A stretch of DNA of 64,000 bases, from the NCBI GenBank assembly GCA_023014335.1, contig JAECYW010000002.1, forward strand, positions 3,348,001 through 3,412,000, in the 5' to 3' direction. Both the position numbers and the translations under genes were made by a program. The stretch is from Galerina marginata (lineage: Eukaryota > Basidiomycota > Agaricomycetes > Agaricales > Galerinaceae). The notes beneath the pieces were generated by a model, which was not told the origin of the DNA, searched no databases, and saw only the letters and a list, made by a program, of their open reading frames with translations. Below, in pieces: positions 22,047-51,600 of this stretch (position 1 is its first letter; each line of letters starts with the position of its first letter).

Positions 22047-22239
22047 TATCTGACATAAGTTTGTTATACATGTGTCAAACTTGGGTGGCCTAACATTTTG
22101 CTTTCAGTTGTAATGTAGATTACATGATCTAGGTACTCACTATTGATAATGTCACCTGAGTTTAAATCTGCATAGATCTATGTGACATGTGATATAGTCA
22201 GACTTTGAGAGTGGGCTTTGCCAGACATTGACCTTACCA

Positions 22240-25180: not shown

Positions 25181-25562
25181 CTTGGTCAGAGGCCATTGCT
25201 GCGCATGGCAAAAACAAGTTCTTACTTTGGGGTGAGGCAGTGCCTGAAGACTTACACTGTTATTAAACAAATACATATTAAATACGTAAATAACATGTAG
25301 TCCGCTCAAATCTGAACCGATTGGGATGATCTTACACTCAAAAAAAGCAGAAAAATGAGGCGGTTCTAACAAGCCTAAGGCCCTGATTTTTACGAATTTT
25401 TTGATACCAAGATCATCAAAATTGGCCCAGTAATGGCTGAGATACAGAAACCATGCAGGGTCACTATAGCAGTGGGAGAATTTCCAACCATTGCGTTAGA
25501 AACCATTTCTGCCTGCTATGCAGGCCGGAAAACAAGTTCTTTTACTACGTAAGAACTTGTAA
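25181..25562 (-). mobile_element. HLR copy 7 (short form)
   Basis: 382 bp. Removal joins CCA|TGG and restores TLFKPW-RTGRDLK in the Helitron protein, proving an A|T target without duplication. Confidence 0.87.
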
Positions 25563-28900: not shown

Positions 28901-28976
28901 CAACCAAGTTTGAACTTGTGTCCTTATCTGCCTAGGGCTTTACAGCAATGGTGTCACCTGAGCCATTGCAGCCCCT
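28901..28976 (-). repeat. tRNA-derived SINE head, foldback copy B
   Basis: Same position and strand as in copy A; A box TGGCTCAGGTG is kept, B box is decayed. Confidence 0.5.
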
Positions 28977-29211
28977 ATATGCCATAAGTTCATTATACAT
29001 GAATCAAACTTGGGTGGCTTAATATTTTGCTTTCAGTTGTAATGTAGATAACATGATCTGGGCATTCATTATTGATGATGTTAGCTGAGTTTAAATTTGC
29101 ATAGATCTATGTGACATGTGACACAGTTAAACTTTGAGAGTGGGCTTTGCCAGACATTGACTTTACTATGCTCATTGTTCTAAATATAGCTGTAATTCAA
29201 GTTTTGAATGC

Positions 29212-29216
29212 ACAGT
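29212..29216. repeat. Target duplication of giant LTR element, left
   Basis: ACAGT, repeated at 51596-51600. The uninterrupted sequence GCACAGTTATATC is visible, in complement, in the other arm of the foldback. Confidence 0.88.
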
Positions 29217-30957
29217 AAGATGGTTGCTGCGGGGTAGTTCTGAATACTAGCTAGACCACAATAGATAAACACTTCAATAATGAACTGAAAATCCCTACTA
29301 TACGTCCCCAATGGTCTCAGTCAATATTCAAATCTAACACTCTTAATTGTCTAGCAGTAATCACCCAATCAAATATTTGACTAGTCGTCTCTGGGAGGGA
29401 CAGTAATTTTACAATACCCTGATCAAAGCCGATGATTCCTGTCAATCTCGTGAACTGAAGGGACGCGTACACAGTATAAGTGCGACGACCCAAAGAAAGG
29501 TTGTATATTGGTTTGAGAAATAGAATGATATTTTTGGTGTAGAGTCCCGTACTCTGTGTTAACGTGAAAATGTCGACTAACGACGTATACTCGATAATCG
29601 GTGTGTTACCGAAACGCAAGTACTCTTAGGTTACCGAAACCTATCAACTAAAATAAACTCTTCAATGTCCCGGATAGTCTACAATTACCGAAATTGTCCC
29701 TATCACAGTCCAGGTCTTTGACAACACCGTACTACCGAAGTACGGTTTAATGTGCTGCCAAATCGGAGGGCCACCGGAGCCTTATTCTAGTCAACAATAT
29801 GACGGTGAACAAGATCTTCGTTTCAAGTCTTAGAACCGTTATCTAAATACTCTCACTCTGATCACAAAGGTGAAATTCTTTCAAGTCAAATACTATTCAA
29901 AATTCCTCGAAGACAAGTCAACACGTTGAAGTCACTTAGGCAGTTCGTATGAACCGTCCAAATATAATTTCGTGGGTGGTAAATTGCTTGTTATTGCGCT
30001 ACAAACGTCTACTAACTTTATACTACGCGATACTAATTTTACATGTGTTATTTCGGAGCACCGTCCTTTTACAAACCTCCGGTCCCATGCGAGTACTGGT
30101 ATCTTACTAAGTCGTGAACCGGATTTAACTGTGCAAAAGAGGAGTTATTGGTACGCGTCCCCGTTAGGTCTGAGTCCCGTAACTCCTTTATGCAATAATA
30201 CCGTCCTTTGATGGAACCGTACCGTGTGGAACAGTCCATATGCTCTCTGGTTAACTTGTTTCATCAATATCTCCGGGTGCCTACAACCGAAAGGAGAAAT
30301 ATCTCCGTGGATTTATTAATTCCCGTCCCCGTTTGTAGAACTCCCCATTAATCCCTTATACCGTGTATCAATGTACGGTACGTTCAGCATGGCATTCCTG
30401 TCTGGTGTTCTAAGTCTCCCGCATGTTGACTTGTTCACGCGCTACACTCTTTGCTAAATATAGGTATGCCCCGTCGGTGAAGTCGGAGGTACCGTACATA
30501 GCTCAAATTGGACTTATCTCCGTTCTTCGGTTCTTTCAAGGGTTCTGCGAATCTCTTCAGTAAGTACGGGAATACCCGCGACTCGTGTTCTGACTTCTCG
30601 GGCCCGTTTCCCGTCTTATTCGGATCGTGCCGAGACGGCATGCGATAACAAAGGCAATCACTGCATCGTTTTGGTTCACAATGAGCGCTAAAGACCCGCG
30701 CTTATCTGTAGTGGGTGCTCGGGTTGGCTCGCGTTCGTAGCACCGTCCATTAATGTATTCACCGTACGTTTTGTAGTACCGTAGTTATGAATACTATTAT
30801 TTTATCACAGTGTCCCGTCGCGTACAATAGTTTTCTTTAGTCTATGCTCTGCGTGTACTGTCCGGGACGTTCAATATACTTCATTTCTATCTAAGTTTGA
30901 GAGAGAAGAGTTCGTAAAATCGAAAAATTCAGGGCTGGACCAAGGGCCGTCCCTTCA
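29217..30957 (-). repeat. 3' LTR of giant element
   Basis: Begins AAGATGG and ends CCCTTCA on the plus strand, so in element sense it starts TGAAGGG and ends CATCTT (not the usual CA). By hand count it holds about 23 CCGT and 5 ACGG on the plus strand. A perfect 8-bp inverted pair ACCGTACT/AGTACGGT lies at 29726-29746. ORFs of 60-100 codons here are not supported. Confidence 0.93.
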
Positions 30958-30975
30958 TCTCCCCCCAACTTAAAT
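30958..30975 (-). promoter_or_regulatory. Polypurine tract at 3' LTR
   Basis: In element sense AGTTGGGGGGAGA directly precedes the 3' LTR, as needed to prime plus-strand DNA. It is preceded by a stem-loop (TTTGACTG/CAGTCAAA at 30974-30996). Confidence 0.85.
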
Positions 30976-31346
30976 TTTGACTGTCCCCAGTCAAACGTGT
31001 TGGCAGATCATGTCTCTGACGTCTAATAGACTTTTGGCGCCAGTCTTTTCCGAGTTGTCTGCGGTGCTTCTCCTGTGAGAATCCGACTGATGTGGTACTC
31101 GCTTTTGCCAGTTCCGTGCAGGGTCATCCTGTATTCGGAATTGTTTGCCCAAGATGGTTCGACCTAGAACGCCGTCCAGCGCTTCCCACTTCAAATTTTC
31201 TCCGTGATCGGTTTTTCCGCGTCAACACCGTCAATTTTTGAATATATTTCTAAGTTCCTCGTCGTCGGTGACCGTGACGTTCTCAAGGTATTTAACCGTC
31301 GCCCATTTCTCTCTCTTTCCCCATCATCTCCAGCGTCTCACCGCTC

Positions 31347-33124
31347 ATGGAGGGCAACGTCAACTTCGACCTCCCCGTCCTCGTCTCGGATGCCATCCTC
31401 GCCGCCATCACCTCCTTCTGGCTTGCGCTCTGGCCTTACGCCGTCGACCTCGTGGATCGTTATGGCACCGTACCGGATTGTAGTACCGTCTTGGCAATTT
31501 TGACCCGCGAATATCAAAACTTGGTGAGTTTTTCCGCTCTGCTGTTCCTCTTCTGTTTTCTAACTCTTTTTGTACGTTCTTAGGCTCTTTTGTACGAAAC
31601 TTATGCCGATCCCGACGTTCTTGAACCCGCCAACATTCGTCGAATGCGTAACTGGCTACATTGGCTCATCCTCCGCCTCGATCTCGAAGACGCCCCGTAC
31701 TTCCGAGCACTCCTTCCTCCCATTGGTCCAGAACGACTCCCCACTCTGGTAAGCATTTTATTCTTTATTTTGTTCTTCCTTAACTAACCGTTTGTATTCT
31801 TTCTGTAGGATGACTTGTACCCCTTGGATATCGACCACTTCAATATCAACTTAGGTGGAGACGTTCATCCGAACGCTTTCGAAATGGACGGTGCACCCAA
31901 CCTTCACGGTTAGTTTATCTCTTTCTTTATCAGTTTAATCTGGGATACTCATTGTTTAGATATGGCTTTAGCAGGTCCCACCTTACGGTCTAGTCGATTG
32001 AAGGGTAAAGGCCGTCAACGGAACGTCTCACCCCAACCCGTAGCTTCAACTTCTCAGCTCCCGCCAACCGACGACGACGATTATCAGGACGGTACCGAGG
32101 AAGAACCGAAACCGAAGTCCCGCAGAAATACCCGTACCGCGACGCCTGCCAACGCAAAACGCCAGGTTGCTCGAGAGAAGGCTTTGAAGGCAAACCCTGG
32201 TAGAGGTGTGCTCTCCGTCGAGAACACCGTACCTCGGATTTCCTTGGAGGAATTGGACAAGATTTATCACATTGACCGGATGGTGAGTCCGATTTGTACT
32301 CTGCCTTTATCTTCTTAATTTCTGACTTCTTTCTATCTTATTAGCCCGATACTCGTTGTCAAACTTGCCGGTTTTACAACCGTCAAGTTCCTTGCACCTT
32401 CCGTGGTCTGGACCAGTACTGTGGGCCTTGTCTCCGGTCTCATACTCGCTGCGACTTCAAGTTCTTGGCCGCCGACACCTTTCGCTTTGAGAACATGTCG
32501 TATGACATTGGTTCTCGTTCTCTTTGCCGTACGTTTGTCTTTCTGTTAACTTTTTCTTATACTTTTCTAACCGTACTTCTCTTTTTAGGACTTCGCGAGA
32601 TTCTTTGTCTTTACGACGAGGAATCTAGTCACCGTGCTCTGCTTATTGCCGCCATAAGCAACCACGAAACGAACATCGACCGTTTTCGTGCAGAAGGCCG
32701 CTCCATCATCCGCGACATGATCCATCGTCACCCCCTCTCTCGTGTTCGTCAACTCGTCGGCGAAGAAGGTACCGTACTCGACCGTCTCTGGAGCGAGTTT
32801 CACCAGTCCTCGTTCCCTGCCTCCGACCCTGCCGAATTCCCCGTCTACTTCCGATCCAACGACTTCTACCTGGCGGATTTTGCAAGGGTCTTCGTCAACC
32901 ACGAGTTCGACGATGTGGATGCCGGTCCTGACTACACCGCAACTTTGGACGGTGAAGACGAAGAAGAAGAGGAAGAAGAAGACCCGCCCCGTTCTGTTTT
33001 CATCGACGACGAGGCCGTTGAAAGCGACGGTGAGGAGTCTGATGCTATGGTGGAGGGTATGGTACTGGACGCGGATGATATGTACACCGGCGGTGACGAA
33101 GACATCGCATCCGAGGAGTATTAG
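31347..33124 (+). CDS. Gene A: Gal4-like six-cysteine cluster protein, antisense accessory gene
   Basis: Six exons: 31347-31523, 31584-31748, 31809-31908, 31960-32282, 32345-32528 and 32589-33124, total 494 aa. All introns are 50-62 nt with GT...AG ends and keep the frame. The middle is basic and disordered. Residues about 205-240 form C-X2-C-X8-C-X8-C-X2-C-X6-C, close to the fungal Zn2Cys6 binuclear cluster (Gal4: X2, X6, X6, X2, X6), known to bind CGG/CCG triplets. The C-terminal 60 residues are strongly acidic, like an activation domain. AATAAA follows at 33237. The DNA-binding role is inferred. Confidence 0.75.
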
Positions 33125-33236
33125 TCGCTCGATATTTCTTTTTATCTCTTTCTTCCTGACTGTAGTTTGCGCACTAGATATTTTATTAGGCTTTTATATC
33201 TAGTAGCTACAGTCCTTGTCCTATATTTTAATCTGC

Positions 33237-33242
33237 AATAAA
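33237..33242 (+). promoter_or_regulatory. Polyadenylation signal of gene A
   Basis: AATAAA about 110 nt after the gene A stop. Confidence 0.5.
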
Positions 33243-33430
33243 GCCTTCTCTTTATCTTGTTACTTGTTATCTGTTTCTCTTATAAGTTGAAGAGATGTCC
33301 TTATTACTGAGCCATCAGAAGTGAAATCTTAAGAGCTTTGAAATCATCTTAAGAAAGCCGAAATTTTTCTGTGAATTTCTCTCTAAGTTTTCAGTTCGAA
33401 AATTTGGTTTACAGTACGGGTACAGGCCAT

Positions 33431-33467
33431 TCTCCCCCCAACTTAAATATCAACTGGCGCAGTTGAT
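33431..33467 (-). promoter_or_regulatory. Second, internal polypurine tract with hairpin
   Basis: 33431-33448 equals the 18 bases at 30958-30975. It is again followed by a perfect hairpin (ATCAACTG/CAGTTGAT, loop GCG), whose stem sequence differs from that at the 3' LTR. It could act as a central polypurine tract or mark an older element end. Confidence 0.65.
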
Positions 33468-33579
33468 ACTAACGCTAGGTATCCGAAATAGACTTATGTG
33501 TCCCGTCGGTAATATCAATCTCCTTTTAGAGCATCAGGGTACCAGTACTTTTCCCCATGTGGGATGCGTCGGTCGCCCG

Positions 33580-33587
33580 CATAAAAG
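33580..33587 (+). promoter_or_regulatory. TATA-like box, gene B
   Basis: CATAAAAG, about 50 nt before the ATG at 33630. Confidence 0.4.
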
Positions 33588-33629
33588 CAGCCTAAGTTCG
33601 CGTTCAATTGCAGTATTATCTGCCCAACC

Positions 33630-34395
33630 ATGGCTACCGTACCAGCCGACGGGTCTGAGGAGCCTCGCTACGCCGAACATCTGCCCTTCTACCTCGTTGA
33701 CCGTGAAACAGCTTGCTATCCCATTGCTCAACGTGGAAACTATCAGTGGGACTTAGACTATCGATACTACATCATCCGTTTGCGCCCCTCCGAGCAGCGT
33801 TACTTCCGGCACCTCTACATACTCAACCTTGCGGGCGATTCCATCGAGAAGATACCCGTCGCTCTGGTCAGGTTGTGGACCTATGCCATGGTACGCTTTT
33901 ATCTTCTCCTTCACATCTGTATTCCTACTCAAACTTCTTTCAATATTCAGCTCGACATTCCGATCCCCCTTATCGTGTACGGGTCTCCCTTTGCCGAGAG
34001 TTTCCGTACTCTCTGCGGAATTTGGGCAATCGTAATCGAGTCCCGTCCCCGTATCCTCGAGGAACCACGCGCCAAGCGCTTTTATGAGTTGATGATGAAC
34101 CCAGACGTCCCCGCTATGCCTCAATATAATTCGGTACGCGTGTCTTTTCATTCACCTCTACCCGTACAAGTCCTGATATTTTTCTAAGGCTGTATATCGC
34201 GCTTGGAAGTTCAGCGGGGTCTGCCTTACTGCGACCTACAATCAACTGCCTCACACGGAGTACGGCAACTTGTACCGTGCCCTTCTCAATTTGCTTCGCA
34301 TGGAGCAATATTCTTCTATTGAGCGGGCGTTGTACGAACAGTACAGTACTCTTTCCAGGGAGCAAGATAGTTACTTGATAGCCCCATCTTCCTAG
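33630..34395 (+). CDS. Gene B: member of the B/C/D accessory family
   Basis: Three exons: 33630-33890, 33951-34133 and 34189-34395, giving 216 aa; both introns are phase 0. Exon 2 begins LDIPIPLIVYGSP and ends LMMNPDVPAMPQYNS, and exon 3 opens AVYRAWKFSG. The same landmarks recur in C and D (YGSP/YGTA, LMxxP-xxP, then intron, then x-VY/LY-xxW). No known domain, no signal peptide or membrane span. An AATAAA is at 34419. Antisense to gag-pol. Confidence 0.75.
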
Positions 34396-34418
34396 AATAC
34401 TCTTCTGATGTTTTGAAC

Positions 34419-34424
34419 AATAAA
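34419..34424 (+). promoter_or_regulatory. Polyadenylation signal of gene B
   Basis: AATAAA 24 nt after the stop of gene B. Confidence 0.45.
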
Positions 34425-34528
34425 ACCCCCACTCTCCTTTATCCGAATTGAGAACTATCTCCATTGCTTAATTGTCTGGTCTCACTGGTCCGACGGTTCT
34501 CTTCTTGAAGCTCCATGTGCTTGGAATT

Positions 34529-34534
34529 GTATAA
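34529..34534 (+). promoter_or_regulatory. TATA-like box, gene C
   Basis: TATAAG, about 60 nt before the ATG at 34590. Confidence 0.4.
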
Positions 34535-34589
34535 GTAGCACCGTCAGTCGGTGAGTGTTTTCCTTCAAACTTCCAAATACTCTCTTATT

Positions 34590-35330
34590 ATGACCGTCGA
34601 TCCTTCTTTTGCGCCCATTATTGGTGGACAGCACGCTACCGAATTCTATGGTCTTCTGATCGTACACACCGACCATTTTCAGTCATACGATGCTCCAACC
34701 GAAGCTATTCGTTCTGAGGCCCGATTGGCCCGTCACGCGTTTTGCGTCCGAGTCCTTGCCCAACCTTCTACCTCGACTGAGGTTTACAAGCCTCCCGTCC
34801 CGGAGTTGATTGTCTGGACGACTGCTTTCGTGCGTATAACACTAAACTCTGTTTTATTCAAATTTTTCTGACGCTCCCGTACAGCTGAAATTCCCGAAGG
34901 ACAGCATTCAGTACGGTAGCCCCGTCGCGTTGCATTTCCTGTCGCTTTCCACTCAATGGATTACCTTAATGCGCGGTCTGCCAAGCTTCTACAATATCAA
35001 GCGCGACATGGCTCTCGCTTACGGTCCGGCAGCCGAGGAGATGCTGACCCTTATGATGGACCCCGCCTATCCCGTACTTCCGACCTTACACACCGTTCGT
35101 ATTTTTCATCAAACCTTTCTGATTTATTTTTCTAACTGTACACCCTTTAGGACGTGTACGGTGTCTGGGACTCGGGAGTCCAGAATTCGGCTGCTGAATA
35201 TCGTCGTCGCCTAGTTGACCACGCCTTCCAAGTGGAAATCAACCACTTGAAAGCGTTAGAGTGGTCCGTTATAGCTGGCGAGACCCGTCCAGGCGGCGAT
35301 TTACCTGCTACCCTTCGTTGTACTGTCTGA
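34590..35330 (+). CDS. Gene C: member of the B/C/D accessory family
   Basis: Exons 34590-34829, 34885-35094 and 35151-35330 give 209 aa, with phase-0 introns at the positions seen in B and D. Exon 2 starts LKFPKDSIQYGSPVA and ends LMMDPAYPVLPTLHT; exon 3 opens DVYGVWDSG. Exon 1 is poorly conserved among the three, apart from an aromatic/aliphatic end (VWTTAF here, LWTYAM in B). Function unknown. The gene ends about 130 bp before gene D begins. Confidence 0.75.
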
Positions 35331-35406
35331 TTGATCATTAGCCCACGTACTTCGTAGACCGTACTGTCCTTCTTTTATTACTATCTGATGTACCTCCCCA
35401 TTTGCC

Positions 35407-35412
35407 TATAAA
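35407..35412 (+). promoter_or_regulatory. TATA box, gene D
   Basis: TATAAA about 50 nt before the ATG at 35458. Confidence 0.5.
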
Positions 35413-35457
35413 TTGAGGCCATTTTTACGGTGTTCTATATCAGAGAAAAAGCCCATC

Positions 35458-36101
35458 ATGTCCTCTCTATCCAACGCTCTCATCATTACCGATAACCAAG
35501 AAGTAGCCCCCTCCAATGAGCGCGGGCAAGTCTCTGCTTCCGTGTTGGCATTTACCGTGGCTTTCGCCCGAGTCGGTGGTAGACCCGTCGACATGCCGTT
35601 TCCCGAGTTAACGCAATTGACGGAGTCATTGGTAAGACAAGTGTCTTTCCTATAGCCATTTACAATTCTTAACCGTACCATCTAGATGAACCTGGATCCG
35701 ACTCTTTTCTGCTACGGCACTGCTATTGGCAATGCCTATATCACCGCGTTCGAATCGTGGTACACGTCTTGGAGGTCACTCCGCGATCAGATGGATATCC
35801 CTAGGGAATTCTTCAACCTCATGATCCGTAAGGACCTCCCGTCCATGAGTCGCTCTTATGGGGTAAGTGCCGATTTTCCATCATGCACCGTACTTGCTGA
35901 TCGATCATTCATCTATTTCTTTAGCAACTCTACGACGCGTGGCGCGAACAAAACTACTTGATCGATGATTTGCGCGCTGACGCCCAGTTCTCCGACTATG
36001 ATCTTTTGCGCTTAAACTATGTCCGCATCAAGGAATGGTTATACCTCCAGAATATCATGAGGCCTTTCCGTGATTTTGGTTTCAGCTCGGGAGCGTACTA
36101 G
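35458..36101 (+). CDS. Gene D: member of the B/C/D accessory family
   Basis: Exons 35458-35631, 35686-35862 and 35925-36101 give 175 aa. Landmarks: CYGTAIGNAY early in exon 2, FNLMIRKDLPSMSRSYG at its end, and QLYDAWREQNYL at the start of exon 3. It is the shortest paralogue, with a reduced N-terminus. The C-terminus has a helical, aromatic-rich stretch. No known fold recognised. Confidence 0.75.
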
Positions 36102-36305
36102 TCCTTAACACAAGTCCCCATCAGATGTAGTCCATATTTGGTAGTTAATATCCTTCTATGGTAAAACATCCGTGGCTGTGAAACATGTGAATGTTGCGCC
36201 CCGTCCCCTTTTGGAGATAGGTCCGTTAACCCGTTAGTCGTTGAAATGTGAAGTCCCCCGTCCGCTAAATCAACTTTGCACCATCAGTAGAAACTCTCTG
36301 ATTAG

Positions 36306-36311
36306 TATAAG
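36306..36311 (+). promoter_or_regulatory. TATA-like box, gene E
   Basis: TATAAG about 45 nt before the ATG at 36356. Confidence 0.4.
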
Positions 36312-36355
36312 AGAGACGGTACTTTCTCTCGTACTTCTCTATCTCTTTTCTCGAA

Positions 36356-37646
36356 ATGCGTGCTGTACTCGATCCTCCGGTTGAAGATGCGGTTCGTCAA
36401 ACGTTCTACATCATGCACCATACTACCCCCGAGTCTCCACACGATGCTCGTTCTGTGTTGTCGCTTTGGGGCGGTCTTATTGATGCGGCGAAATTAATCG
36501 TGCGTACCGTACATCATTTGGCCCCGTCACTTTCTGATTAATTTTCTTTCTCAGTCGGGTTGGGTGGAACATCCTCAGCTAGTCCAGGATGCTGGCAAAG
36601 CTGCCAGGGATATTCCTTTCGGCATTCGACGTGCTTTTCAAGACTACATGAAAGCCTACCCATCCAAATTTCCGGAGTATCCGCAAGAGTACCGTAGCAT
36701 GGCTCGACTCTGCAAGTCTATTCAGGAAATTCGCGATAAGCCCGTACGAGTCAGTTTTCTCTGTATACTTCTTGTTCTATTTCGCTGACTATCCTTTCTT
36801 CTTAGCCGGCTAAACTCTCAGGTAGATCTAGCCGTCCCCGTCCCGACGATATCGAAGAAGACGTGAGTAGCTTAACCGTCCCCTCTTTTTATTATCTGGG
36901 TTACTAATTAGTTACGGTTCGTAGGATGATATGGAGGAGGTAAGACGCCTTATCAACCGTCTTTTAATTCAAGGTCTCTTAGTTAGGGCTTTCAAGGCTA
37001 TGGTCGTGGACGACGAGGGTGGTGCGGCCGGTAGTCAGAGTTCTGCTACCGTCCAATCCTCCGCTACTCCTGCTGCTGAACGCGTTCTTCGGTTCAAGAA
37101 GAAACCTGCTGCAGCTAAGGTACGCGTACCCTCGTCCGTTCATGTCAAGAAGCCTAAACCTAGAAATGCCCCCAAAGCTTGCGGAGAAGCGCATGGAAGT
37201 GAGATTTATATTTCACGAACCCATTCCTGGTCTCGATATTGAATCTCTTTCTCTCAACAAGGCACCCACGAAGCCTCCTACTGTTGCGGGAAACCCTTCC
37301 AGCAAGAAGCCCAAGCCAAACCACCCCGTCGCCGACGGTACGTATTCGTCCTTTTATTTCTAACCGTCCCTTTTACTAATTTTTCTCTGTTCAAGGGGCT
37401 ACTCCTTCTGAGCTTTCGGAATCAGCATTGCAAGAGGCTCAAGAAGTAGCGGCTTCATCTTCCCTCCCGTCCGATTTGGAGGGCGTAGATAGGCAGCTTA
37501 TGTCGTTGAGCGCGGATTTAAGTGACTACAATTATCGTGTTACTTATAATCTTCGCCAACGTGAAGCCGTCCTTCTCGAAATCGCCAAGCTTAAAGAAGC
37601 CCGTTTACATCTGGATGTCTCTCTCGACGATGCTGATAATAACTAA
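36356..37646 (+). CDS. Gene E: basic/Ala-Pro-rich protein with C-terminal coiled coil
   Basis: Clear exons are 36356-36499, 36555-36743, 36806-36862, 36925-37119 and 37396-37646. The stretch between 37120 and 37395 probably holds one coding exon (37262 to about 37337, Lys/Pro-rich), but splice choices are uncertain and an intron within 36940-36981 is also possible. The middle has basic Lys-Pro patches, and the last 80 residues are heptad-like (LKEARLHLDVSL), suggesting a coiled coil. No known family. It converges on pol, with 95 bp between the two stops. Antisense like A-D. Confidence 0.6.
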
Positions 37647-37741
37647 TCCTTATACGCGTAAATAGTCTTAGGTTTTTCCCTTAGTAGTTTGTACTGCTAC
37701 TTAGGCACTTTTCCCCAATACTATCGTCAATTTTTACGCAT

Positions 37742-39156
37742 CTATTCTTCATCACTATCAGTTTCTAAGTGGACTTTCTCTAGTGCATAGTCGCGCTGTT
37801 TCTTGCCTAAGTCCTCGATTTCTTCTGGGCCTGCTAGAATCTTTTCTAGGCCTTCTCTAGAGACGTCTATGAGGTCTAATATATCCCCCGTCACTTCTAT
37901 CTTCTCTCTGGCATAGTACGGGATCACTCTGAACGCGCCAACCTTATGTTGCCAGACGGCACCGTTCATTTCAGCAACTACGTACGACCCTCCCAGAGTC
38001 CGTCTAATTACTATCATAGGCCCTAAATATCTGGGCTTCATTTTCTTATCCAGACTATCCTCGACGGTAGTATTCCTCACTAATACTAAATCACCCGGCT
38101 GGAAGTCATAATCCTTAATGACCGCACGATTGTCGGCTTCGTAGCGTAATAAATGCTCGTACTTCTGTTGGTCAATTCTTTTTCTCATTTGATCAACGTG
38201 GACCTTATGCTTAGCTAGTGCCTGGGCACGAAATGCTATTAATTCATCGTCCGTTAGGATACCCGTCGGTGGTTTCACTAGCCAAGTGGCTTCTTTCACG
38301 TCTAAAGGTAATATTGGATGTGCTCCCGTCACCATAAAGAAAGGTGAACACCCCATTCTTCTTCTGATCGTGATTCGGTCGGCCCACATAACGTACGGTA
38401 AGAACCAGTACCACTTGTGCACGTTCTTTTCACCGAGTAATTTATATAGCATTTGCCTGACGTCCCAATGAGGTCGTTCTACAGTACCGTTAGCTTGTGA
38501 GTTGTACGGTGATATTCGAATTCCTTTGATCCCGTACTTCTCCTCAAGCCATTTAACTGCTGCTAAAAATGCTGGTCCATTATCCGTCACGAATTCTACG
38601 ATACACGCCCATCGACATATAATATCTTCCCAGATCCACATGCCAATCGACCGTCCGTCTTGTTTTCTAAGTGCCCGTCCTTCCATCCAAGATGTCATCG
38701 CGCACCGTCCATGGGCAATAAATCCACACTGATTAGAAGCGGGCGTCATATGCATAACATCTGCATGTAGGGTCTGAAAAATGGACGGTGTATGAGTTAT
38801 AATTGGTTTAATCTTTATCATAGTCTTCTGCCTTTCCTGACAAACGTGACAAGTTTTAATAAACCAATTAACATCCCTCTCCATTTCCGGCCACCAAAAT
38901 CGCTGAATTAATAGTTGGTTAGTAGCATAAAACCCTCTATGTCCAACGTGATCATGGGCTGCAGTCAACATGTACATTCGTTTATCTTTCTCAACGTATA
39001 GACGATGTTGAGCGTTTTGCCCTCGATGATACAACCGTCCTTCGTACATGATAAAACGGTTAGCGAACCGTACAAACTGCTTGTATTCTTTCTCGTTGAG
39101 ACCCTTGGGCCTATACTTCCTGTTGGCGAACCATTCAGCCATGTCAGCTATATTTC
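37742..39156 (-). pseudogene. Giant element integrase (3' half of split pol)
   Basis: HHCC domain (HDHVGHRG, then CHVCQERQ), followed by the D,D,E core: [21 protein letters not shown], and [13 protein letters not shown]. Then [11 protein letters not shown] and [13 protein letters not shown], a GPY/F-like C-terminus. The frame is open from the insertion border to the stop at 37742. Removal of 39161-44253 with one copy of TATA joins it in frame to the RT/RNase H half ([14 protein letters not shown]), so it was one pol ORF until recently. Confidence 0.85.
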
Positions 39157-39160
39157 TATA
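39157..39160. repeat. TATA target duplication of 5.1-kb element, left
   Basis: TATA here and at 44254-44257; AT-rich borders also allow a TA or ATAT reading. Confidence 0.6.
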
Positions 39161-42100
39161 TGAAACACTGCAATTTCCCAAAAGCCTGTTATACATCCAG
39201 AGTGGGTTTTTCCAATACTGCCTTTTTGCAGTCTTTACGTTTTACATATCTATAGGGTGGGTAGGCATGCCAGGGATACGTATATGGGTGCTCTGGGGTG
39301 CGGGACACAGTAAATACATGTAAACAATGTCCCCCATGATGTCGGGCACTGCCTAATGGGTGCTGCTCATCATTTGGGCGCTTTTGGGCGCCTTTAGGCG
39401 CGGGAATAAATCATGCAGGGTCTCTAAATATTGATAGCAATTAGAATTGGCTTCTGCTCGTCGTTGGGGGCGGGTTTCGGGGCTGAAAAAGCGCCAGGGG
39501 GTATATATTAGTACCCACATTCCATCTGGGATGTTGGTCACCCCGTCGGGGAGGCGCGACACGCCTAACTCGAATCTGCAAACGGATGCCATGAGTCCCG
39601 ACGGGGTCCTAGTTCCATTTTCGGACGCGTCCCGCGCCTTTTCGGCTCTTTTTGGATGAGCGATAAAAATAGATTCGTGTAGTTTTCGTGCTATATTCCT
39701 CTCATTACTTCCGTCCCGCCACTTCTCAATGTATATTCGTAATGTCCTTGTAAATACAAAACTAATGATATAATTTTTATTGCAAAATGTGACCTGGAAG
39801 TGGCCAAACGAATGAATGATACTTGCGTGTACCATAGGATGAGTGTTATAAATAGATTGCTGCGAAATGCCCGCCGTTTTTACCCTACCTCCAGCTTGAC
39901 TTACTGCCTCCTTACTTATATACATACAGCTGTAATCAGCATAAAAATGCGAACATATCTATACCAATTTTATTGACAAATAGCCGGTGGCTGGCCCTGT
40001 AATACCCTCAAAGCTTTGATTTATAGTTATAAAAGAAAATCATCGAATATAATTATTCAACAATATGTCTACCACATTAAATCGTCGTAGACTACGCTAG
40101 CTACTCAAGTTACATATAATAAAGTAGGGGGAACAGCGGCAGTACTAGCTGCCCGCTCGTTCACCCTGCCGGTCCCACCTCAGCCTTCTTCTCCACCATC
40201 CCCTCGTGCCCTCACATTCACACCCCGGTTGCTGTTGCGGCGGACTCTGAGCTGGCGAACGTCCGAGAGTGTTGAATTAGCCGGGAGACGGAGCTACGTG
40301 GTTGTCGAGGACGAGAACTGTCCGAGCCTCCACCTATCGCCTGACCTTCATCGACATCGACTACGCACCGCGGCCCACACATGACGGACTACAGGTGGGA
40401 AGACGTCGGCACCGGAGCAAAGGGAATGGCCAGGGATGAGTGGGTGTCCAAAGGGAGGGGGTGGGCTGAGCTACCAACGAACGCGAAAGCCGTTGCACTC
40501 GCGTTCGTTTCCCTGGTCCGCGTCAGCTCTGCCTCTGGCCATCGCAAGCGGGGCGCGAGCGTGGTGGGGTGGAGCAGTGCGACTCGCAGTCGGACGACGC
40601 GCGACTGCGAGATCACAGGGATAGCGAGGGGGTACGGGCAGCACAAGGGAAAACGACGACCGTCGGCGTTGACCACCGATGGAGGGGCAGCAAGAATGCG
40701 AGGGGGACAAGGCAGCCCCATTAGCCCGCCGTTGCTACCCCGCCGCCGTCGATGTATCCAAGTAAGAGCAGCACCAGTGGTGCTGCTCCTGCCCTTGCTA
40801 ACCCTGCAGTGCAGCCGCTGTGTCTGAGGCACATGCTGCTGTTCTTCCAACAGCTACCGGCGCCGCACAACCACTCCTCCATCCACCCCACCGCCCACTT
40901 CACCGCCCTTGCCGCCACCGCCCTCTCGTCACCCAAGCCATCGTAACCCGCATCTCGCTGGTACTCGTTACCACCCGCTGTTCCGGCGACCGTCGACGTA
41001 CGCATGCGAAAGTTGAGGGAGGCAGCCCGTGCCTTTGCTCCCCCAGTTGGGCGTGGGGGTTGGTATTGGAGGTGGGAAAGGGGTGGTGCCGGTGACGACG
41101 CCGGTCGCTCTGCATCTCGGAAACGGGGTGTGGCGGGTCGTGGCTGAATGGTGACGAAAGGAGTGGCATGAAGGGAAGGCGTTGGCGGCGTAAACTGCGT
41201 GGAATTGCGACTGGGCTTGGTGTGGTCGAAGGTGCTGCGGATTCGTAAGGTGGGGAGGAACGGGTGATGATGGCGTGCTTTGAAAGCGCCGGCCCACATG
41301 CGTAAGGCGAGGGGCACGCGACGCCCAATGAGGCCAAGAGGGAGCGAGGTGGAGAGGGGCAGAGGTGGTGGTGGTGGTGAGAGAAGGAGAAATCAACATC
41401 AACGTTGTTGATCGAAGGCGTGTGATTGGCTGACGCAGTCGGGCCGCGTTGACTCCGATCCGTCTTCAACATCTCGAACATCGTCTCGCTCATCCCAATA
41501 TTCACTCTAGACTCCGGAGATCGGCGGTATATACTGTATATGTAGTTTAGAAATAATATCTAGCCTCAAATAAATAATTGATAAAGAGTACCATTTATTA
41601 AATTGATTGTGTATCGAATGTTTGAAAACGTCGAGGAATTTCTTTGATCATTCATGCCTAAAAGCTATGAACTAGAGGTTAGGAAAGTTTACAATGTATT
41701 TTAGCCACGTAAAGTATCTAGAAGTTTTCAAAACAATGCATATTCTCTCTTCAATACTTTTCCTTGAGGCTAATGATGCCTGAAGCACCTGAATACCATA
41801 CCGTTAAACACACTGTTTGACCGAAATCACCACGCTCAGAGGCGCATGTTCGTATCATACCGAAAGAAATCACATTGGCCACCGGACACACGAAAATGAA
41901 TTTTTAAGTTAGCTTTTAATACATGACACTATTTATTTCTACACGTAGGGTTTGTTTTACCATCGTCCGAGACGTCTTCGACAATGACTAGCCTTGACGG
42001 ATTGCCCGGTCCGTTCGAGGCAGCCAATCATATCGATCACCGAAAACGCCGAACGCGAGATCAACCGCCATCAACACTGGTTGATCTTGCTCTCCACCAC

Positions 42101-44253
42101 CATTTCCTACATCCCCTCGCTCCCTCCTAGCCCACCCCGCCCCTCAAGGCTTCAATAACTTGTTTAGTAAGTGATATTATAGATTTCTATTGCTATATTA
42201 CTTATTTTTCTTATCTCACAGGTATTTTAATGCACGAACAACTTCGTGCCGCGCGTCGCGAGCCCCCCCTCACGTCGAGGGCTGTGGGCCGACGTTCCAA
42301 CGAATTCAGGTGGGAATAGGGTGGAGGATAACGAGGGGAGACCCTGGAGAGGGAGACCCGCCCGGTACGTCGCAAGGCGAGTCGAAATACGACTCGCCTC
42401 GCTTTCCTTCCTCCTCCGCACGCCCCCAGCTCATTCGCTCGCGGTAGGCTGGTTCGGAGCCCTCTGCCGCTGCCTATCTCGATACCGACCCCACCTACGA
42501 TGCCACCTCTCCAGGCCGCCATCGCCTTCCGCGTCCACGAAACACCCAAGGTCAGCAGAGCAGCAGCACGACCGCTGCTGCTCCTATGACACGAGTATTG
42601 TACCCCGACCAGCACAAGAAGCAGCAGCATCACCGCTGCTGCTTCTGCGACACCAATGCCCGACGAGTGAGCAGTGGTAGCAATACCGCTGCTCCCTTTT
42701 CAGGGTGACGAGGACGGGATGGCGAGGAGGCAACCAATGTTTACCTCCTCTCACTCGATGCGTCGCACCTCTTCCTCGCGTTCGCGTTCGTGACCAACGC
42801 CGTCACTCGTCCGCTACGCCTCCGCCTTCCTCGTACCGCGACGTCCCCACCACTCGAGACCCACCTGCTCGCTCCCTCCTCCCCTCGCAATTCGCCCCAC
42901 TCCAAAGGCAGACATGAACTGCGAAGAACAAACACGAATACAACGACGTTCGCGTTCGAACCCTTCCATCCCCCCACCCTCTCTCTCACTGCCCATTGTC
43001 CACAGCCCCACCTGACGGCATCTCTCAGCCCGCAGTCCACGTCACGCGTGAGTTGCGATGGTAGGGAGATGACGTGTGGGATAGGACGAAATGAAGCACA
43101 AGCTGCAGCGTCCAACTTGAATGCTGCGGCAAGTGTGAAGGGAGTGGGTTGGAGGATGGCGCCGCCATGGATTCGCCGCCGACTCCCACCATACGATCCG
43201 CACACACCATGAGTGAGTACCTCGGGAGTTGACGGTGCGAATGCGACGGTTGCGGAGAGATATTGGTGTGAGATGAGAGCCGGGGGTCTGCTTCTCGGGT
43301 CAGTGGGGGTAAGTATTGACCAGCTATGTAGTCTTACCGCTGTGTAATAGTAGAATATTCACGAATATAATTCGATCTTTGCATTTACCTGCACAAATAA
43401 GGCTTGAGGGAATAGCTGGGCCATCCAGTAGGTATTTATCCGTAAATTTGGTATGAATAGGTTCGCATTCTCAAGCTGATTACGGTTGTGTCTACACAAG
43501 TGAAGGGAAAGGTGAACTGAGCTCAGGATAGGGAAAAAACGGCGGGTATGTCGTAGAAATCTATTTATAACACTCATCCCGGAGCCGGTGGGTAACATTC
43601 AGCTGTTTGACCACTTCCAGTGCACATTTCGCAATAAAAACTATATCATTAGGTTCGTATTTACAAGGCCACTACAAATATGTATTGAGAAGTGAAGGGA
43701 AAGAGAAAATAAAGAGAATATAGCACGAAAACTGAGCAAATCTATTTTTATCGTTCATCCAAAAAGAGCCGAAAAGGCGCGGGACGCGTCCGAAAATGGA
43801 ACTAGGACCCCGTCGGGACTCATGGCATCCGTTTGCAGATTCGAGTTAGGCGTGTCGCGCCTCCCCGACGGGGTGACCAACATCCCAGATGGAATGTGGG
43901 TACTAATATATACCCCCTGGCGCTTTTTCAGCCCCGAAACCCGCCCCCAACGACGAGCAGAAGCCAATTTTAATTGCTATCAATATTTAGAGACCCTGCA
44001 TGATTTATTCCCGCGCCTAAAGGCGCCCAAAAGCGCCCAAATGATGAGCAGCACCCATTAGGCAGTGCCCGACATCATGGAGGCCATTGTTTACATATAT
44101 TTACTATGCCCCGCACCCCAGGGCACCCATATACGTATCCCAGCAGGCCTAGCTACCCTATAGATGCATAATACATAGCTGACTGCCTTTTGGCAGTATT
44201 GGAAAAACCCACTCTGGATGTATAACCGGGTTTTGGGATATTGCAGTGTTTCA
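39161..44253. mobile_element. 5.1-kb foldback DNA element inserted in pol
   Basis: Ends TGAAACACTGCAA and its complement. Inverted arms of about 0.7 kb (39161 to about 39900; about 43530 to 44253), including a nearly identical stretch of some 320 bp (39346-39665 against 43745-44064). The centre has two GC-rich blocks (about 40140-41520 and 41960-43310) flanking an AT-rich block. Long ORFs there overlap on both strands and look compositional. I see no transposase. Superfamily undecided. Confidence 0.75.
40130..43310. other. Central part of 5.1-kb element, no supported gene
   Basis: GC-rich blocks with GCTGCTG-type runs (42540-42690) and a perfect 9-bp hairpin GGCGAGTCG/CGACTCGCC (42376-42398). 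Captured host or satellite DNA is possible, but nothing was recognised. Confidence 0.4.
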
Positions 44254-46790
44254 TATATAATCGTAGCTGCTACAGGTGAACCATTTCTGAACTGCCGGTA
44301 TTCTACCGTCCTGTTGAATAGCACTTGCTGTCCGGTGCTTTTCAGGGTACGGTCCTTTCTGCTGAAGTTTATCATTATCTGGTAATGCCAATACGTTAAC
44401 TAATTGTTGTACGGCGTCACATCGTTCCGATCCTAGAGCTGCTTGATTATTAGCTAAATAGTTCTCTAAATGGATCTTTTCTTGTATCCTGAATGAATCG
44501 GCTTCCTCTAGTTCCTGTTTGAAACACGAAGTTGACTTGGCCACTCTGTCGAACCGTCCACGATCTTCCTCTATAAGATGGGCAAATTCTAGGATCGGTA
44601 AGGGACGGGTCGCACTGTTATCAGCCAAAGTGATACGTGGGCCTACTCCTGCTTGCAAGAAGGTCTCAGAGACTAATTGCTGCATGAATCCCTTACGATT
44701 GTCGATCTTATCTGCGAAGTCATTAATAGATTTGATCGGTGGCTCCGTCGGATCAGCAATAGTTATTTTAAAACGTCCCGTCAATTCGTCTTCATCTTCA
44801 GGGTCCGAGTCCGTCTCCGTTTCCGATACTTCGGGATCGGCGGGTTGCCTATGACGTCTAGACAAACCGTCAGGGCCAAAGGTTTTCCCTGCTTTATGAC
44901 GCAACTCGAAGTGATACATGCCGATCTGTTCTATCCATCGGTTTATGACCGCATTAGGCATCATGTCCGGATTGTGCAACATTCCCCCGATGAACTGGGC
45001 GTCTGTTTCCACAATTAATTTCCTGACGCCTATCAACCATTTCTTATTAGCTTCTAAAGCTTTCTTCAATCCGAAGAGCTCCCTCTTTGGTTGAGAATAA
45101 CGAGCTTCTTGTTCATTCAAGGTTATCGAGCCGAATTTTGCATAATAATGCTTCTTCGGGTCGTCCTTGTCCTCTTGGTAGATATAATACCCTACGGCAA
45201 TGTAAGAAGTATCTACCGCAAGTACTACGGCTCCCTGTCCTTCATAATCTATTGGCTTTAATGAATAAGAGTTACGAACACCCTCTTTTAACATAGCCAT
45301 ACTCTTTTCTTGGTCAGGGCCCCATTCAAACGGAGTATCTTTGCGTGTTAATTTCTGTAGGTGACGGGCTCTTAGTGCATAGTTGGAAATATAACACCGA
45401 AGAACGCCTGCCGTTCCTAGGAACGCCCGTACGTCCGATAAATCTTTGCACGGTCCCCAATCCTCAATTATCTTAACACGATCGGTAGTGGGTTTCCGCC
45501 CGTTAGGTGTACATTGATGTCCTACCACGGTGATCTCTTCTGCACATAGGAGTGACTTAGTGCCAGAGAAGGTTCCCCCACAATATTTCATCCGTTGAAT
45601 TATTCTGTTGACGTTCTGCATGTGTTCCCAGATAAAACGCCTGATCCCGTCATTTTCTGGTATCGTTTCACATGTACCGTCCGCTTTTTCATATCTAGTA
45701 GCTGGGCCTCGTACGGGCACATCATCTATATAAGGCATCGTATATTCCGGTATTTCTGCCTGTAAAATGAAATTTACATCATCATGAAATATAGGTACGG
45801 AGTTCGTCCAACCCATCGGTAAAGTCACTAGTCTCATGGCACCGTACAGTGTCTGGAAGGTAGTGAGATCCCTGCTGGCCTCGTCTAATATTCTTTCATC
45901 ATATCCGACGTATAAATCGAACATTCCACCGCATGCCCGTCCGGCGAAATGGGTAGCTAAATCTTCAGTTGCTGGGGGAACCCCTGAATGAGCAATAGTT
46001 ACTGCATTCAATGGTTCTAGACTGTGTACTAGTCTGAGACTCTTACCGTCCTTCTTGAGTACGGTAAACCACTTAGACCGGTACGACGAGTTCGATGCTT
46101 GATAGACACCCGAGTCCCTCTTGGACTTGATAATCCTACAAACCTCATCGTACAGTCCCGGCGGAATAGGAATATTTTTATATACCCAAGGTGTGTGTTC
46201 GACGGTGGGTATCACTACAGGAGGAAAGAAATCTTCCCGAAACGTGCCCCGTTCTGAGTCTTCCCATGCAAAAGCTCCATTCTGGTTCATCATAATATTG
46301 TGGACTAATTTCCTTTCTTCTGGTAAAAGAAAATCGCCTTCATGTACTTTATCAAACGCTTTCTGTCTGGCTTCGGTGTACCGTCCAGTTGGTACAAAAT
46401 CCGTTGGGTTCGGATTTAATTCCGGCATGTCCTCTAAGGGATCGCCTTTAATTTCCCTAATTATTCTAAATTTCTCTGGTAGTTCCGCGTACACTGGACG
46501 GACTTTCTGTGCTACTGGCTTATACTTCTTTCCTAAGAATACCGACGCAGACGGTTCACTAGGAAGCGAGGCTGCTGTCTGCTGGAAGTATGCTTGGGCT
46601 TTATTTCTATCTGATTCTTCAATGCCATCTTCTTGTAGGGCTTGGGATAAATATGCATCCCGTACTCCCGTATCTGTAAATTTCTGTCCTTTCGGTTGTG
46701 CATAACTAATCAAATTAATCGTCTGTGTTTCTTCATTAAGCTCAAACACCACAGCTACCTCTCCTTGATCTGGGATCAATTCCTCAAGGC
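44254..46790 (-). pseudogene. Giant element RT and RNase H (5' half of split pol)
   Basis: RT motifs in order: FTVLKKDGKSLRLVHSLEPLNAVT in part, GGMFDLYVGYDERIL, TLPMGWTNSVPIFHDDV, and the catalytic YIDD (YTMPYIDDVPV). The thumb/connection has DVRAFLGTAGV. RNase H shows AVVLAVDTSYIAVG, SQPKRELFGLKKAL, VETDAQF and HKAGKTFGPDGLSRR. All catalytic residues I can check are present. The reading frame is -1 to the protease ORF across a CTTTTTAG stretch; no ATG is needed if frameshifting operates. The C-terminus is cut by the 5.1-kb element. Confidence 0.87.
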
Positions 46791-46793
46791 CGT

Positions 46794-48002
46794 CTAAAAA
46801 GATTGAGCTTTTTGTCGCTGGAGAACATCAGGACTTTCACCCCGACGGTACGTTGGAAGTACTGCTCTCCGTTCACTATTTGGATCCGAGATCACGATCC
46901 GTTGGTCGCCATCATCGGTATTTTGTACCGTACTACTAGTCAACACGTCGAACGGTCGTCCCAATAATACTCGGTACGGTGGGTTCTTAATGATGTGTAC
47001 TTGTAAGTACACCGTCACTCCCCCGAACGAAAATGGTACATTTTCCGCTAATCCCAGTGTCTTCTCAACCGAGCCATTTGCACTTTGCATGTTAATAGTG
47101 ACGTTTGGGTTCCAAGTTAAACCGATTTCAATAGCTACGGCCTCAGACATAGAAACAATCTGTGAGCCGCTATCTACGATCGATTCTTCTTGTCCTATAT
47201 GATTTATTTTAGGATATAAGGAACGCAGGGCATAAGTATCCCTTGCGACGTATACCTCCTTTGGAACTGCACCGTCATGCGTTTGGGCAAATTGCAAGTA
47301 CGGGTCTGATGCGACTCGTAAATCAGGCTGAAGGTTCTGATCGTTGAGAATCCCGGCTAACATGAAGTTAGATACGGGTAATTGATCGACCGTCAAACCT
47401 GTCTCTATCTCTCTCGTCCTAGCATCGGCCTCTAGTATTTCCTCCATGAAGACTTGTTTTCTGGCTTTAGTGACATTTTTCTTAAATGCCTCCCGGATGC
47501 CGGGTGCATTGCCCAACAAGTTCTTTAATGGTATGGCTACCGAAAGGTCCATGATTTCATCTAGGACTTTACTAGACTCTGCGTTTTCCTCGACGGGTGC
47601 CTTAGTTTTATATGCTGGACCGTCCTTAGGTGCCTCGTTCGTGGCCGGTCGCGGCTCACTAGTACGGGTCACAGTCTTCAACGGTGGGACATCTACATAA
47701 GGCAACTCCCTCGGCTTTACTACTGCTTTTGGCAAGGTTTTAGCCTTAACAGTACGCTCTTTTTCTTTGCTCTTTCGCGACGAAACCGGCGGTCCTCTTG
47801 GTACCGGCTCTTCTTCAACTTCTTCTTCCTGTTCTTCTTCAGTCTCTTCGCTATCTCCTTCATCAGCTGATTCTTGGGGTATTTCTGTTTTCTTGATAAA
47901 CCTGACACTTTTACAGTTCTCCAGGGGCTTTGCTTTAGTCGACTTATCCACCGGTTTAGTAGAGGAAGTCGCTGCCCCTTTCCTCGAACTTATTGAAAAT
48001 TT
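46794..48002 (-). CDS. Giant element protease ORF, entered by -1 frameshift
   Basis: The retropepsin site is IVDSGSQIVSM (DSG), with LLGRPFDVL downstream as the second conserved loop. The N-terminal half is acidic and Lys/Pro-rich, and there is a helical domain before the protease (ILEADARTREIETGL). The ORF overlaps the end of gag in the -1 frame, has no ATG near its start, and ends with TAG at 46794-46796 within a T5 run. Confidence 0.82.
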   Translation of the reverse strand, partial: KFSISSRKGAATSSTKPVDKSTKAKPLENCKSVRFIKKTEIPQESADEGDSEETEEEQEEEVEEEPVPRGPPVSSRKSKEKERTVKAKTLPKAVVKPRELPYVDVPPLKTVTRTSEPRPATNEAPKDGPAYKTKAPVEENAESSKVLDEIMDLSVAIPLKNLLGNAPGIREAFKKNVTKARKQVFMEEILEADARTREIETGLTVDQLPVSNFMLAGILNDQNLQPDLRVASDPYLQFAQTHDGAVPKEVYVARDTYALRSLYPKINHIGQEESIVDSGSQIVSMSEAVAIEIGLTWNPNVTINMQSANGSVEKTLGLAENVPFSFGGVTVYLQVHIIKNPPYRVLLGRPFDVLTSSTVQNTDDGDQRIVISDPNSERRAVLPTYRRGESPDVLQRQKAQSF

Positions 48003-49730: not shown

Positions 49731-49802
49731 TTTTAAAATAGTAGCTTTCTGTAACCGTCAATTGTACGGTTGTGATTTTTCAGCTTTCCGATATAGACAG
49801 AA

Positions 49803-49820
49803 AGATCAAAGGTTTGATCT
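49803..49820. repeat. Perfect 8-bp palindrome in leader
   Basis: AGATCAAA-GG-TTTGATCT, 15 bp from the primer-binding site. Possible RNA dimerisation hairpin; inferred. Confidence 0.35.
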
Positions 49821-49834
49821 GGAATTTAACCCCC

Positions 49835-49851
49835 CCTCGCGGTGGGCTCCA
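49835..49851 (-). promoter_or_regulatory. Primer-binding site
   Basis: In element sense TGGAGCCCACCGCGAGG lies 3 nt after the 5' LTR; it begins TGG, complementary to a tRNA CCA end. The tRNA is not identified. Confidence 0.6.
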
Positions 49852-49854
49852 GAT

Positions 49855-51595: not shown

Positions 51596-51600
51596 ACAGT

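What the first reader, a model, noticed from the sequence alone, without database searches (positions are those of the whole stretch)
30958..37741. Antisense, intron-bearing five-gene cassette inside a fungal LTR retrotransposon
Five plus-strand genes with 2-5 GT/AG introns each lie between integrase and the 3' LTR of a minus-strand gypsy element flanked by matching LTRs and a 5-bp target duplication. Introns survive reverse transcription only if the genomic RNA does not see them as introns, so antisense orientation is exactly what would let an element carry spliced genes. Antisense extra ORFs are known in some plant gypsy elements; a multi-gene, multi-intron cassette in a basidiomycete element is, to my knowledge, undescribed. 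This is the best candidate for a new system in the window.
Basis: partly seen in the sequence, partly recalled or inferred. Interest (0 to 1): 0.92.

Follow-up and report, generated by a model that had tools for sequence, protein, structure and literature searches.

The report
Five antisense spliced genes inside retrotransposon
A family of jumping genes in a mushroom genome carries, opposite to its own replication genes, a set of five predicted intron-bearing genes, seen beside 22 of the 24 related integrase copies examined; that orientation would let the introns survive copying through RNA, and the proteins likely help the element control itself.

Summary
The element at 29216-51595 is a Ty3/gypsy retrotransposon with identical LTRs, a 4-bp (not 5-bp) target duplication and a matching empty site. 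Between integrase and 3' LTR lie five plus-strand genes with 17 predicted introns. A cassette sits there, antisense, at 22 of 24 integrase loci of three families (alpha, beta, gamma; integrases 82-87% identical to the window's between families). Gene order and intron positions match in the one beta and one gamma copy read, although proteins A-D are only about 28-38% identical. dN/dS of genes A-C among alpha copies is 0.05-0.21. Genes A, C and E, searched genome-wide, matched only at such elements, so neither host capture nor chance fits. Two further finds: a hairpin-polypurine module is duplicated on both sides of gene A in all three families; and alpha carries CCGT[AC]C about 25 times more densely than its flanks, whereas gamma and beta are enriched in CCGCG[GT]C. 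Gene A has six invariant cysteines resembling a zinc cluster. Best reading: an integral accessory cassette whose proteins likely regulate the element, possibly like VANC anti-silencing. Single antisense genes are known in plant gypsy elements and fungal Boty; no multi-gene, multi-intron cassette appeared in the papers searched. Splicing and function are untested.

The parts
29216..30957 (-). 3' LTR of the minus-strand element
   Evidence: identical to the right LTR
49854..51595 (-). 5' LTR
29212..29215 (.). target duplication ACAG, left
51596..51599 (.). target duplication ACAG, right
49836..49851 (-). putative primer binding site, two bases after the 5' LTR
   Evidence: sequence; primer tRNA not identified
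30958..30995 (-). polypurine tract and hairpin at the 3' LTR junction
   Evidence: conserved in beta and gamma
33431..33467 (-). second, internal copy of the polypurine-hairpin module, between genes A and B
31347..33124 (+). gene A, 494 aa, exons 31347-31523, 31584-31748, 31809-31908, 31960-32282, 32345-32528, 32589-33124; six conserved Cys, acidic tail
33630..34395 (+). gene B, 216 aa, exons 33630-33890, 33951-34133, 34189-34395 (notebook name C)
34590..35330 (+). gene C, 209 aa, exons 34590-34829, 34885-35094, 35151-35330 (notebook name D)
35458..36101 (+). gene D, 175 aa, exons 35458-35631, 35686-35862, 35925-36101 (notebook name E)
36356..37646 (+). gene E, 310 aa, exons 36356-36499, 36555-36743, 36806-36862, 36925-37119, 37178-37198, 37262-37337, 37396-37646 (notebook name F)
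37742..39135 (-). integrase part of pol, tail to tail with gene E
39136..44280 (.). nested insert with terminal inverted repeats, edges approximate; not part of the element
44281..46827 (-). RT and RNase H part of pol
46794..48041 (-). aspartic protease frame
47990..49732 (-). gag-like frame with a weak zinc knuckle match (E 0.0032, below cut-off)
29216..51595 (.). CCGT[AC]C dispersed over the element: 112 in element sequence, 3 in the nested insert, 11 in the flanks

Best explanation
A lineage of Ty3/gypsy retrotransposons in this mushroom genome carries, antisense between integrase and the 3' LTR, five predicted intron-bearing accessory genes, at least three of them under purifying selection, whose products likely act in the nucleus as element-specific regulators. 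Shown by sequence: place, orientation, gene order, intron positions, selection on genes A-C, duplication of the hairpin-polypurine module, and enrichment of family-specific CCG-containing words. Inferred: transcription from promoters inside the cassette (TATA-like boxes precede four of the five window genes) and splicing of those transcripts; the genomic RNA is the other strand, so it shows the introns only as complements and would carry them through reverse transcription. Predicted: gene A encodes a zinc-cluster-like DNA-binding protein with an acidic tail. Inferred and untested: it recognises the short word repeated over its own family (CCGT[AC]C in alpha, CCGCG[GT]C in gamma, both in beta) and thereby activates its element or protects it from host silencing, as VANC proteins do for VANDAL transposons. 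Genes B-D (one duplicated family) and E would be partners of unknown role. The second polypurine tract would give a further start for plus-strand DNA synthesis and may help exchange the gene A module.
For: Cassette at 22 of 24 integrase loci of 82% identity or more, 22 of 22 antisense; the two without it are truncated. Same order and intron positions in alpha and in the one beta and one gamma copy read. dN/dS 0.05-0.21 for genes A-C. Gene A exons 91-92% vs introns 73-78% identical; gene E 8 differing positions in 933 exon bases vs 19 in 358 intron bases among three alpha copies. Gene models of Galerina marginata share the exon joins of gene D throughout and the first join in gene E's variable part. 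TATA-like box in 8 of 14 cassette genes, all 39-60 bp before the start, vs 8.2% of random cassette positions with the same 25-130 bp window. The word was noticed in the cassette and then counted in LTR, gag-RT and integrase: 8.0, 6.1 and 7.2 per kb, vs 0.25-0.67 in window flanks, solo-LTR flanks, nested insert and one sister element; it lies in exons and introns, in all three codon phases though unevenly. Gamma CCGCG[GT]C 30 vs 3.5 expected, beta 17 vs 3.1. Six Cys invariant in three gene A homologs. Integrase 82-87% but gene A 30-34% identical between families, as expected of a fast-changing recogniser.
Against: No RNA, binding or methylation data. The zinc-cluster profile PF00172 matches the Cys exon only at E 0.079, below cut-off, and in one of three homologs. 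AlphaFold models are poor (pLDDT 39 and 54) and Foldseek finds nothing at E <= 0.001 for the gene D relative. Preservation of the word between alpha copies exceeds matched windows in only 1 of 6 comparisons (12 of 12 vs 7.9, P 0.008), and there the test is slightly lenient because either form of the word counted as kept; mutation simulations gave P 0.05-0.49. Unlike VANC motifs the word also lies in coding regions and not in arrays. It was found after the fact, and is strand-biased in the cassette (32 to 8). Genes B-E have no recognised domain. No TATA-like box precedes gene A in any of the three families. One Galerina gene A model (P0005) departs from mine around the second and third exons.
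Confidence: 0.5

Rival explanations
1. The five proteins are accessory structural or transmission proteins (particle assembly, nuclear import, spread) rather than DNA-binding regulators, and the dispersed word has another cause.
For: Genes B-D are a duplicated family without a DNA-binding signature; gene E has basic stretches and a helical-looking end (reading of the sequence). Env-like genes lie in the same place in plant elements (PMC7264820, passages).
Against: No known structural domain in Pfam or, for the Galerina relatives, in NCBIfam; no transmembrane prediction was run. Antisense expression would be unusual for particle proteins. Gene A's Cys pattern and acidic tail fit a nuclear role.
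Confidence: 0.27
2. Antisense transcription itself is the function (complementary RNA or small RNAs), the proteins being incidental.
For: Antisense transcripts are proposed to regulate other retroelements (PMC7264820, passages).
Against: dN/dS 0.05-0.21 and protein-level conservation across three families.
Confidence: 0.07
3. A host gene cluster captured once and carried as a passenger.
For: The genes have host-type introns and TATA-like boxes.
Against: No match away from the elements for A and C at E <= 0.01 or for E at E <= 0.001; shared by three families with the same order; selection still acts. An ancient capture before the families split is not excluded.
Confidence: 0.06
4. The antisense genes are over-prediction on an ordinary long 3' region.
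For: Splicing is not observed directly; one gene E intron is called by homology only.
Against: dN/dS, exon-intron contrast in A and E, intron phases kept in three families, Galerina gene models.
Confidence: 0.02

Closest known systems
Plant Ty3/gypsy elements with antisense additional ORFs between pol and 3' LTR (Grande, RIRE2, Retand/TRP28)
   Same: [quoted passage not shown] a regulatory role is proposed (PMC11963269 and PMC7264820, passages)
   Different: There mostly ORFs with TRP28 or other domains, and the word intron was not found in either text; here five genes with 17 predicted introns, no TRP28 match, fungal host
Botrytis Boty/BcGypsy1 with antisense gene brtn
   Same: A fungal gypsy element with an added antisense gene (seen as citations and one passage in PMC7264820 and PMC8365987; original not seen)
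   Different: One gene in an ascomycete; sequences could not be compared here
HTLV-1 HBZ and related retroviral antisense genes
   Same: Spliced antisense gene beside the 3' LTR coding for a nuclear regulator (PMC10186651, passages)
   Different: One gene driven by the 3' LTR; here five genes with TATA-like boxes inside the cassette and no bZIP match in Pfam
VANC anti-silencing proteins of Arabidopsis VANDAL DNA transposons
   Same: Short family-specific motif repeated over the element and a fast-evolving element-encoded protein (PMC5735166, passages)
   Different: VANC motifs are mainly non-coding and in tandem repeats and VANDALs are DNA transposons; no domain match found here; binding untested
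Sireviruses and Athila4/Calypso with extra polypurine tracts
   Same: Additional polypurine tracts upstream of the 3' LTR; an inverted repeat at the terminal one (PMC2829016, passages)
   Different: Here one internal copy about 2.5 kb away with its own palindrome, on the far side of an antisense gene

Membership tests
Ty3/gypsy LTR retrotransposon | Matching LTRs with a short target duplication | tested here: met
Ty3/gypsy LTR retrotransposon | Order protease - RT - RNase H - integrase, Ty3-like RT | tested here: met
   Pfam reports RNase H but no RT model, the RT call rests on the Ty3 structure match E 5e-15
Ty3/gypsy LTR retrotransposon | Primer binding site and polypurine tract at the LTRs | tested here: met
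   by sequence; tRNA not identified
[quoted passage not shown]
   22 of 24 loci
Antisense additional-ORF gypsy elements (Retand/Grande type) | TRP28 domain (PF04195) | tested here: not met
   no such match in Pfam scans of the cassette proteins
Zn2Cys6 transcription factors (PF00172) | Match to the zinc-cluster profile | tested here: inconclusive
   E 0.079, 13.5 bits vs cut-off 21, in 1 of 3 homologs
Zn2Cys6 transcription factors (PF00172) | CxxC-x6-C spacing of the first three Cys (recalled) | tested here: not met
   six Cys invariant, but that loop is 8, 7 and 9 residues in alpha, beta, gamma
VANC-type anti-silencing | Family-specific motif enriched over the element | tested here: met
VANC-type anti-silencing | Motif mainly non-coding and in tandem repeats | tested here: not met
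   6.3 per kb in exons, 8.6 in introns, 3.2 between genes; scattered positions
VANC-type anti-silencing | Protein binds the motif and removes methylation | not testable with these tools
   none
Boty/brtn | Homology to brtn | not tested
   sequence not at hand

The most novel reading that the evidence does not exclude
Retrotransposons can run a VANC-like self-recognition system: an antisense, intron-bearing gene encodes a fast-evolving zinc-cluster-like protein that reads a CCG-containing word written about a hundred times across its own element (CCGT[AC]C in alpha, CCGCG[GT]C in gamma) and shields that family from silencing, while a duplicated polypurine tract lets the recogniser gene be exchanged as a module.
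Probability: 0.2. Interest if true: 0.92.

Novelty: new variant of a known kind. Interest (0 to 1): 0.8.

Why it matters
A sense-strand intron would be lost whenever a retrotransposon copies itself through spliced RNA. A five-gene, 17-intron cassette kept while three families diverged shows that antisense placement can let an LTR element carry ordinary eukaryotic genes, a route to accessory gene sets as rich as those of complex retroviruses. The family-specific dispersed word makes self-recognition or anti-silencing by a retroelement a concrete, testable case.

Tried and rejected
Host-cluster capture: whole-genome protein searches with genes A, C and E found only places at or near element copies; B and D were not searched on their own. 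The gene E query P0002 also hit many places with its residues from about 252 on, which belong to another repeat; those rows were set aside before the count of 22.

Relatives elsewhere: the three protein searches gave two Galerina marginata proteins each (searches scored only the 7995 best candidates); one scan of viral contigs with P0005 gave none. Other fungal genomes could not be searched.

Next integrase clade (42% identical, C40:140307): the 7.5 kb downstream shows no cassette relative by tblastn, best E 0.13. One locus only.

Gene E: I first took one intron near 37120, doubted it because the retained reading looks conserved in beta, tried a wrong alternative and settled on two introns that all three families share.

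Structure: both AlphaFold models are too poor to use; Foldseek gave nothing at E <= 0.001. Pfam, NCBIfam and solved-structure searches of cassette proteins gave nothing above cut-off; P0004 hit AbiEi_3 at E 0.0012, below its cut-off, and was set aside.

Divergence of gene A among alpha copies (dS 0.27-0.38 against 0.04-0.11 for B and C, leaving out the nearly identical L040-L041 pair) over about 31250-33430 is noted, not explained.

Tests for selection on the word were mixed.
Full report
Names. The five genes are A-E from left to right; the notebook and several scripts call them A, C, D, E, F. The window's family is alpha; two related families of the same genome are beta (read in L074) and gamma (read in L075).

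The element. LTRs 29216-30957 and 49854-51595 are identical over the 1741 bases compared. The target duplication is 4 bp (ACAG): of nine other LTR insertions, four show only 4-bp repeats, three read as 4 or 5, one solo LTR shows none clearly and one had flank on one side only. Joining the window's flanks without one repeat gives a sequence identical at 116 of 116 bases to a paralog in the same window. Minus-strand frames give aspartic protease, RNase H and an integrase zinc domain in Pfam; the RT frame's best solved relative is Ty3 RT (E 5e-15) and the integrase matches PFV and Ty3. Pfam reports no RT model. In this copy a nested insert of about 5.1 kb with long inverted repeats splits pol; its end matches 15 other genome places. 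LTR pairs of three other alpha copies differ at 1, 1 and 2 positions.

The genes. Five plus-strand genes open when 17 introns of 51-63 bp, all GT-AG in the window, are removed: A 494 aa (5 introns), B 216 (2), C 209 (2), D 175 (2), E 310 (6). Of five alpha copies, A is open in 3, B in 5, C in 4; D was read only in part outside the window, and E was aligned with an older model in three others, whose exons carry no frame-breaking difference from the window. One gene A donor is GC in two copies. B, C and D are paralogs (B-C 2e-13, B-D 7e-6, C-D 2e-5) with introns at matching places.

Selection. Between alpha copies dN/dS is 0.05-0.12 for A, 0.05-0.16 for B and 0.055-0.21 for C, in 9 of 10 pairs each; the pair L040-L041 has no synonymous change (window codon columns only). 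In A, exons are 91-92% and introns 73-78% identical. In B and C exons and introns are about equally similar (exons 97-98%, introns 95.5-97%), so there the evidence is dN/dS alone. In E, 8 of 933 exon and 19 of 358 intron positions differ among window, L069 and L071.

Other families. tblastn with the window proteins finds all five genes in the same order in L074 and L075. Splice-aware alignment puts the introns at the same residues and phases (E redone by hand); for A in beta and gamma it also adds introns in the poorly alignable middle. Only one copy of each family was read through. Integrases are 85-87% (beta) and 82-84% (gamma) identical to the window's; A is 34 and 30%, C 38 and 30%, B and D about 28-34% over matched stretches, the first two exons of E 79-90%.

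Linkage. One search gives 24 loci with integrase of at least 82% identity (my grouping of split matches: 7 alpha, 8 beta, 9 gamma). At 22 of 24 gene E lies beside it on the opposite strand; in some loci inserts of up to tens of kb separate the parts. The two without are an integrase fragment (C34:2368808) and a copy that keeps only the end of gene E (C7:688623). Gene A was found at 21 and gene C at 22 places, all on the same contig stretches, in one beta case some 44 kb from the next part. That tool's counts are lower bounds.

Polypurine modules. TCTCCCCCCAACTTARAT followed by a palindrome lies at the LTR junction and again at 33431-33467 between A and B, in the alpha copies read and in beta and gamma loci. 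The short beta and gamma loci were fetched because they match these two places, so their number is no independent count; L074 and L075, fetched for the cassette, hold both. The two stems differ at paired positions (GACTG/CAGTC against AACTG/CAGTT), so pairing is kept. RNA folding gives z -1.8 and -1.9, which is modest. Extra polypurine tracts are known in Sireviruses and Athila4/Calypso (PMC2829016, passages).

The dispersed word. CCGT[AC]C occurs 126 times in the window against 27.5 (sd 5.3) in shuffles: 112 in 17.2 kb of element (6.5 per kb), 3 in the nested insert, 11 in 41.6 kb of flank (0.26 per kb). I noticed it in the cassette; LTR, gag-RT and integrase then gave 8.0, 6.1 and 7.2 per kb, against 0.25-0.67 in window flanks, nested insert, solo-LTR flanks and the sister element L076. 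CCGCG[GT]C is enriched in gamma (30 against 3.5 expected) and beta (17 against 3.1). LTR-side 1.5-kb pieces hold 2 of it in 7 of 7 beta copies and 6-9 in 8 of 8 gamma copies; the beta pieces also hold 4-5 CCGT[AC]C and the gamma pieces 2-3; copies of one family are not independent. The word lies on both strands, in introns and in all three codon phases, unevenly, which speaks against codon usage alone. In the cassette it is strand-biased (32 to 8). Zinc-cluster proteins commonly bind CGG triplets (recalled).

Promoters. A TATA-like box lies 39-60 bp before the start in 8 of 14 cassette genes tested (4 of 5 alpha, 2 of 5 beta, 2 of 4 gamma), none before gene A; random cassette positions have one in the 25-130 bp window in 8.2%. 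One gamma gene had no clear start and was left out, and the beta gene B start is uncertain.

Literature. Searches. I read passages, not whole papers, of PMC11963269, PMC7264820, PMC8365987, PMC3248453, PMC2829016, PMC5735166, PMC13317346 and PMC10186651; all others only as listings. None of what I saw describes a multi-gene, intron-bearing antisense cassette in an LTR element. Most subscription journals are outside that library.

Mechanism and limits. That the cassette is an integral, selected part of the element is close to certain on sequence grounds. That its transcripts are spliced is strongly predicted. That protein A reads the dispersed word and regulates or shields the element is inference from its Cys pattern, acidic tail, fast evolution and the word's distribution; there are no binding, expression or chromatin data here, and the domain match is below cut-off.

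Noticed in passing
39136-44280: Nested insert with long terminal inverted repeats (arms within 39134-39896 and 43520-44280) that splits pol in this copy; its end matches 15 other genome places.
   Followed up: partly
20000-29215: The element sits in DNA full of long inverted and direct repeats with a PIF1-like helicase frame (23612-24895 minus, Pfam E 8e-25), Helitron-like in look.
   Followed up: partly
57155-58138: Minus-strand frame with DUF6570 (Pfam E 1e-43), beside further repeats.
   Followed up: no
31250-33430: The gene A block is far more divergent among alpha copies (dS 0.27-0.38) than the rest of the region read; the divergent stretch ends near the internal polypurine tract at 33431, as if exchanged as a module.
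   Followed up: partly
L011 and L017 (C34:1012686-1031707): An alpha copy inserted into another alpha LTR, with the 4-bp duplication CCGG.
   Followed up: no
C8:988-1028 kb, C4:0.99-1.04 Mb, C40:2.53-2.60 Mb, C5:1.85-1.93 Mb: Copies of two or more of the three families lie in the same contig intervals, which might mark centromeres or preferred nests.
   Followed up: no
37120-37177: The fourth intron of gene E is unusually similar between alpha and beta and reads in frame as a basic stretch; possible alternative splicing.
   Followed up: partly
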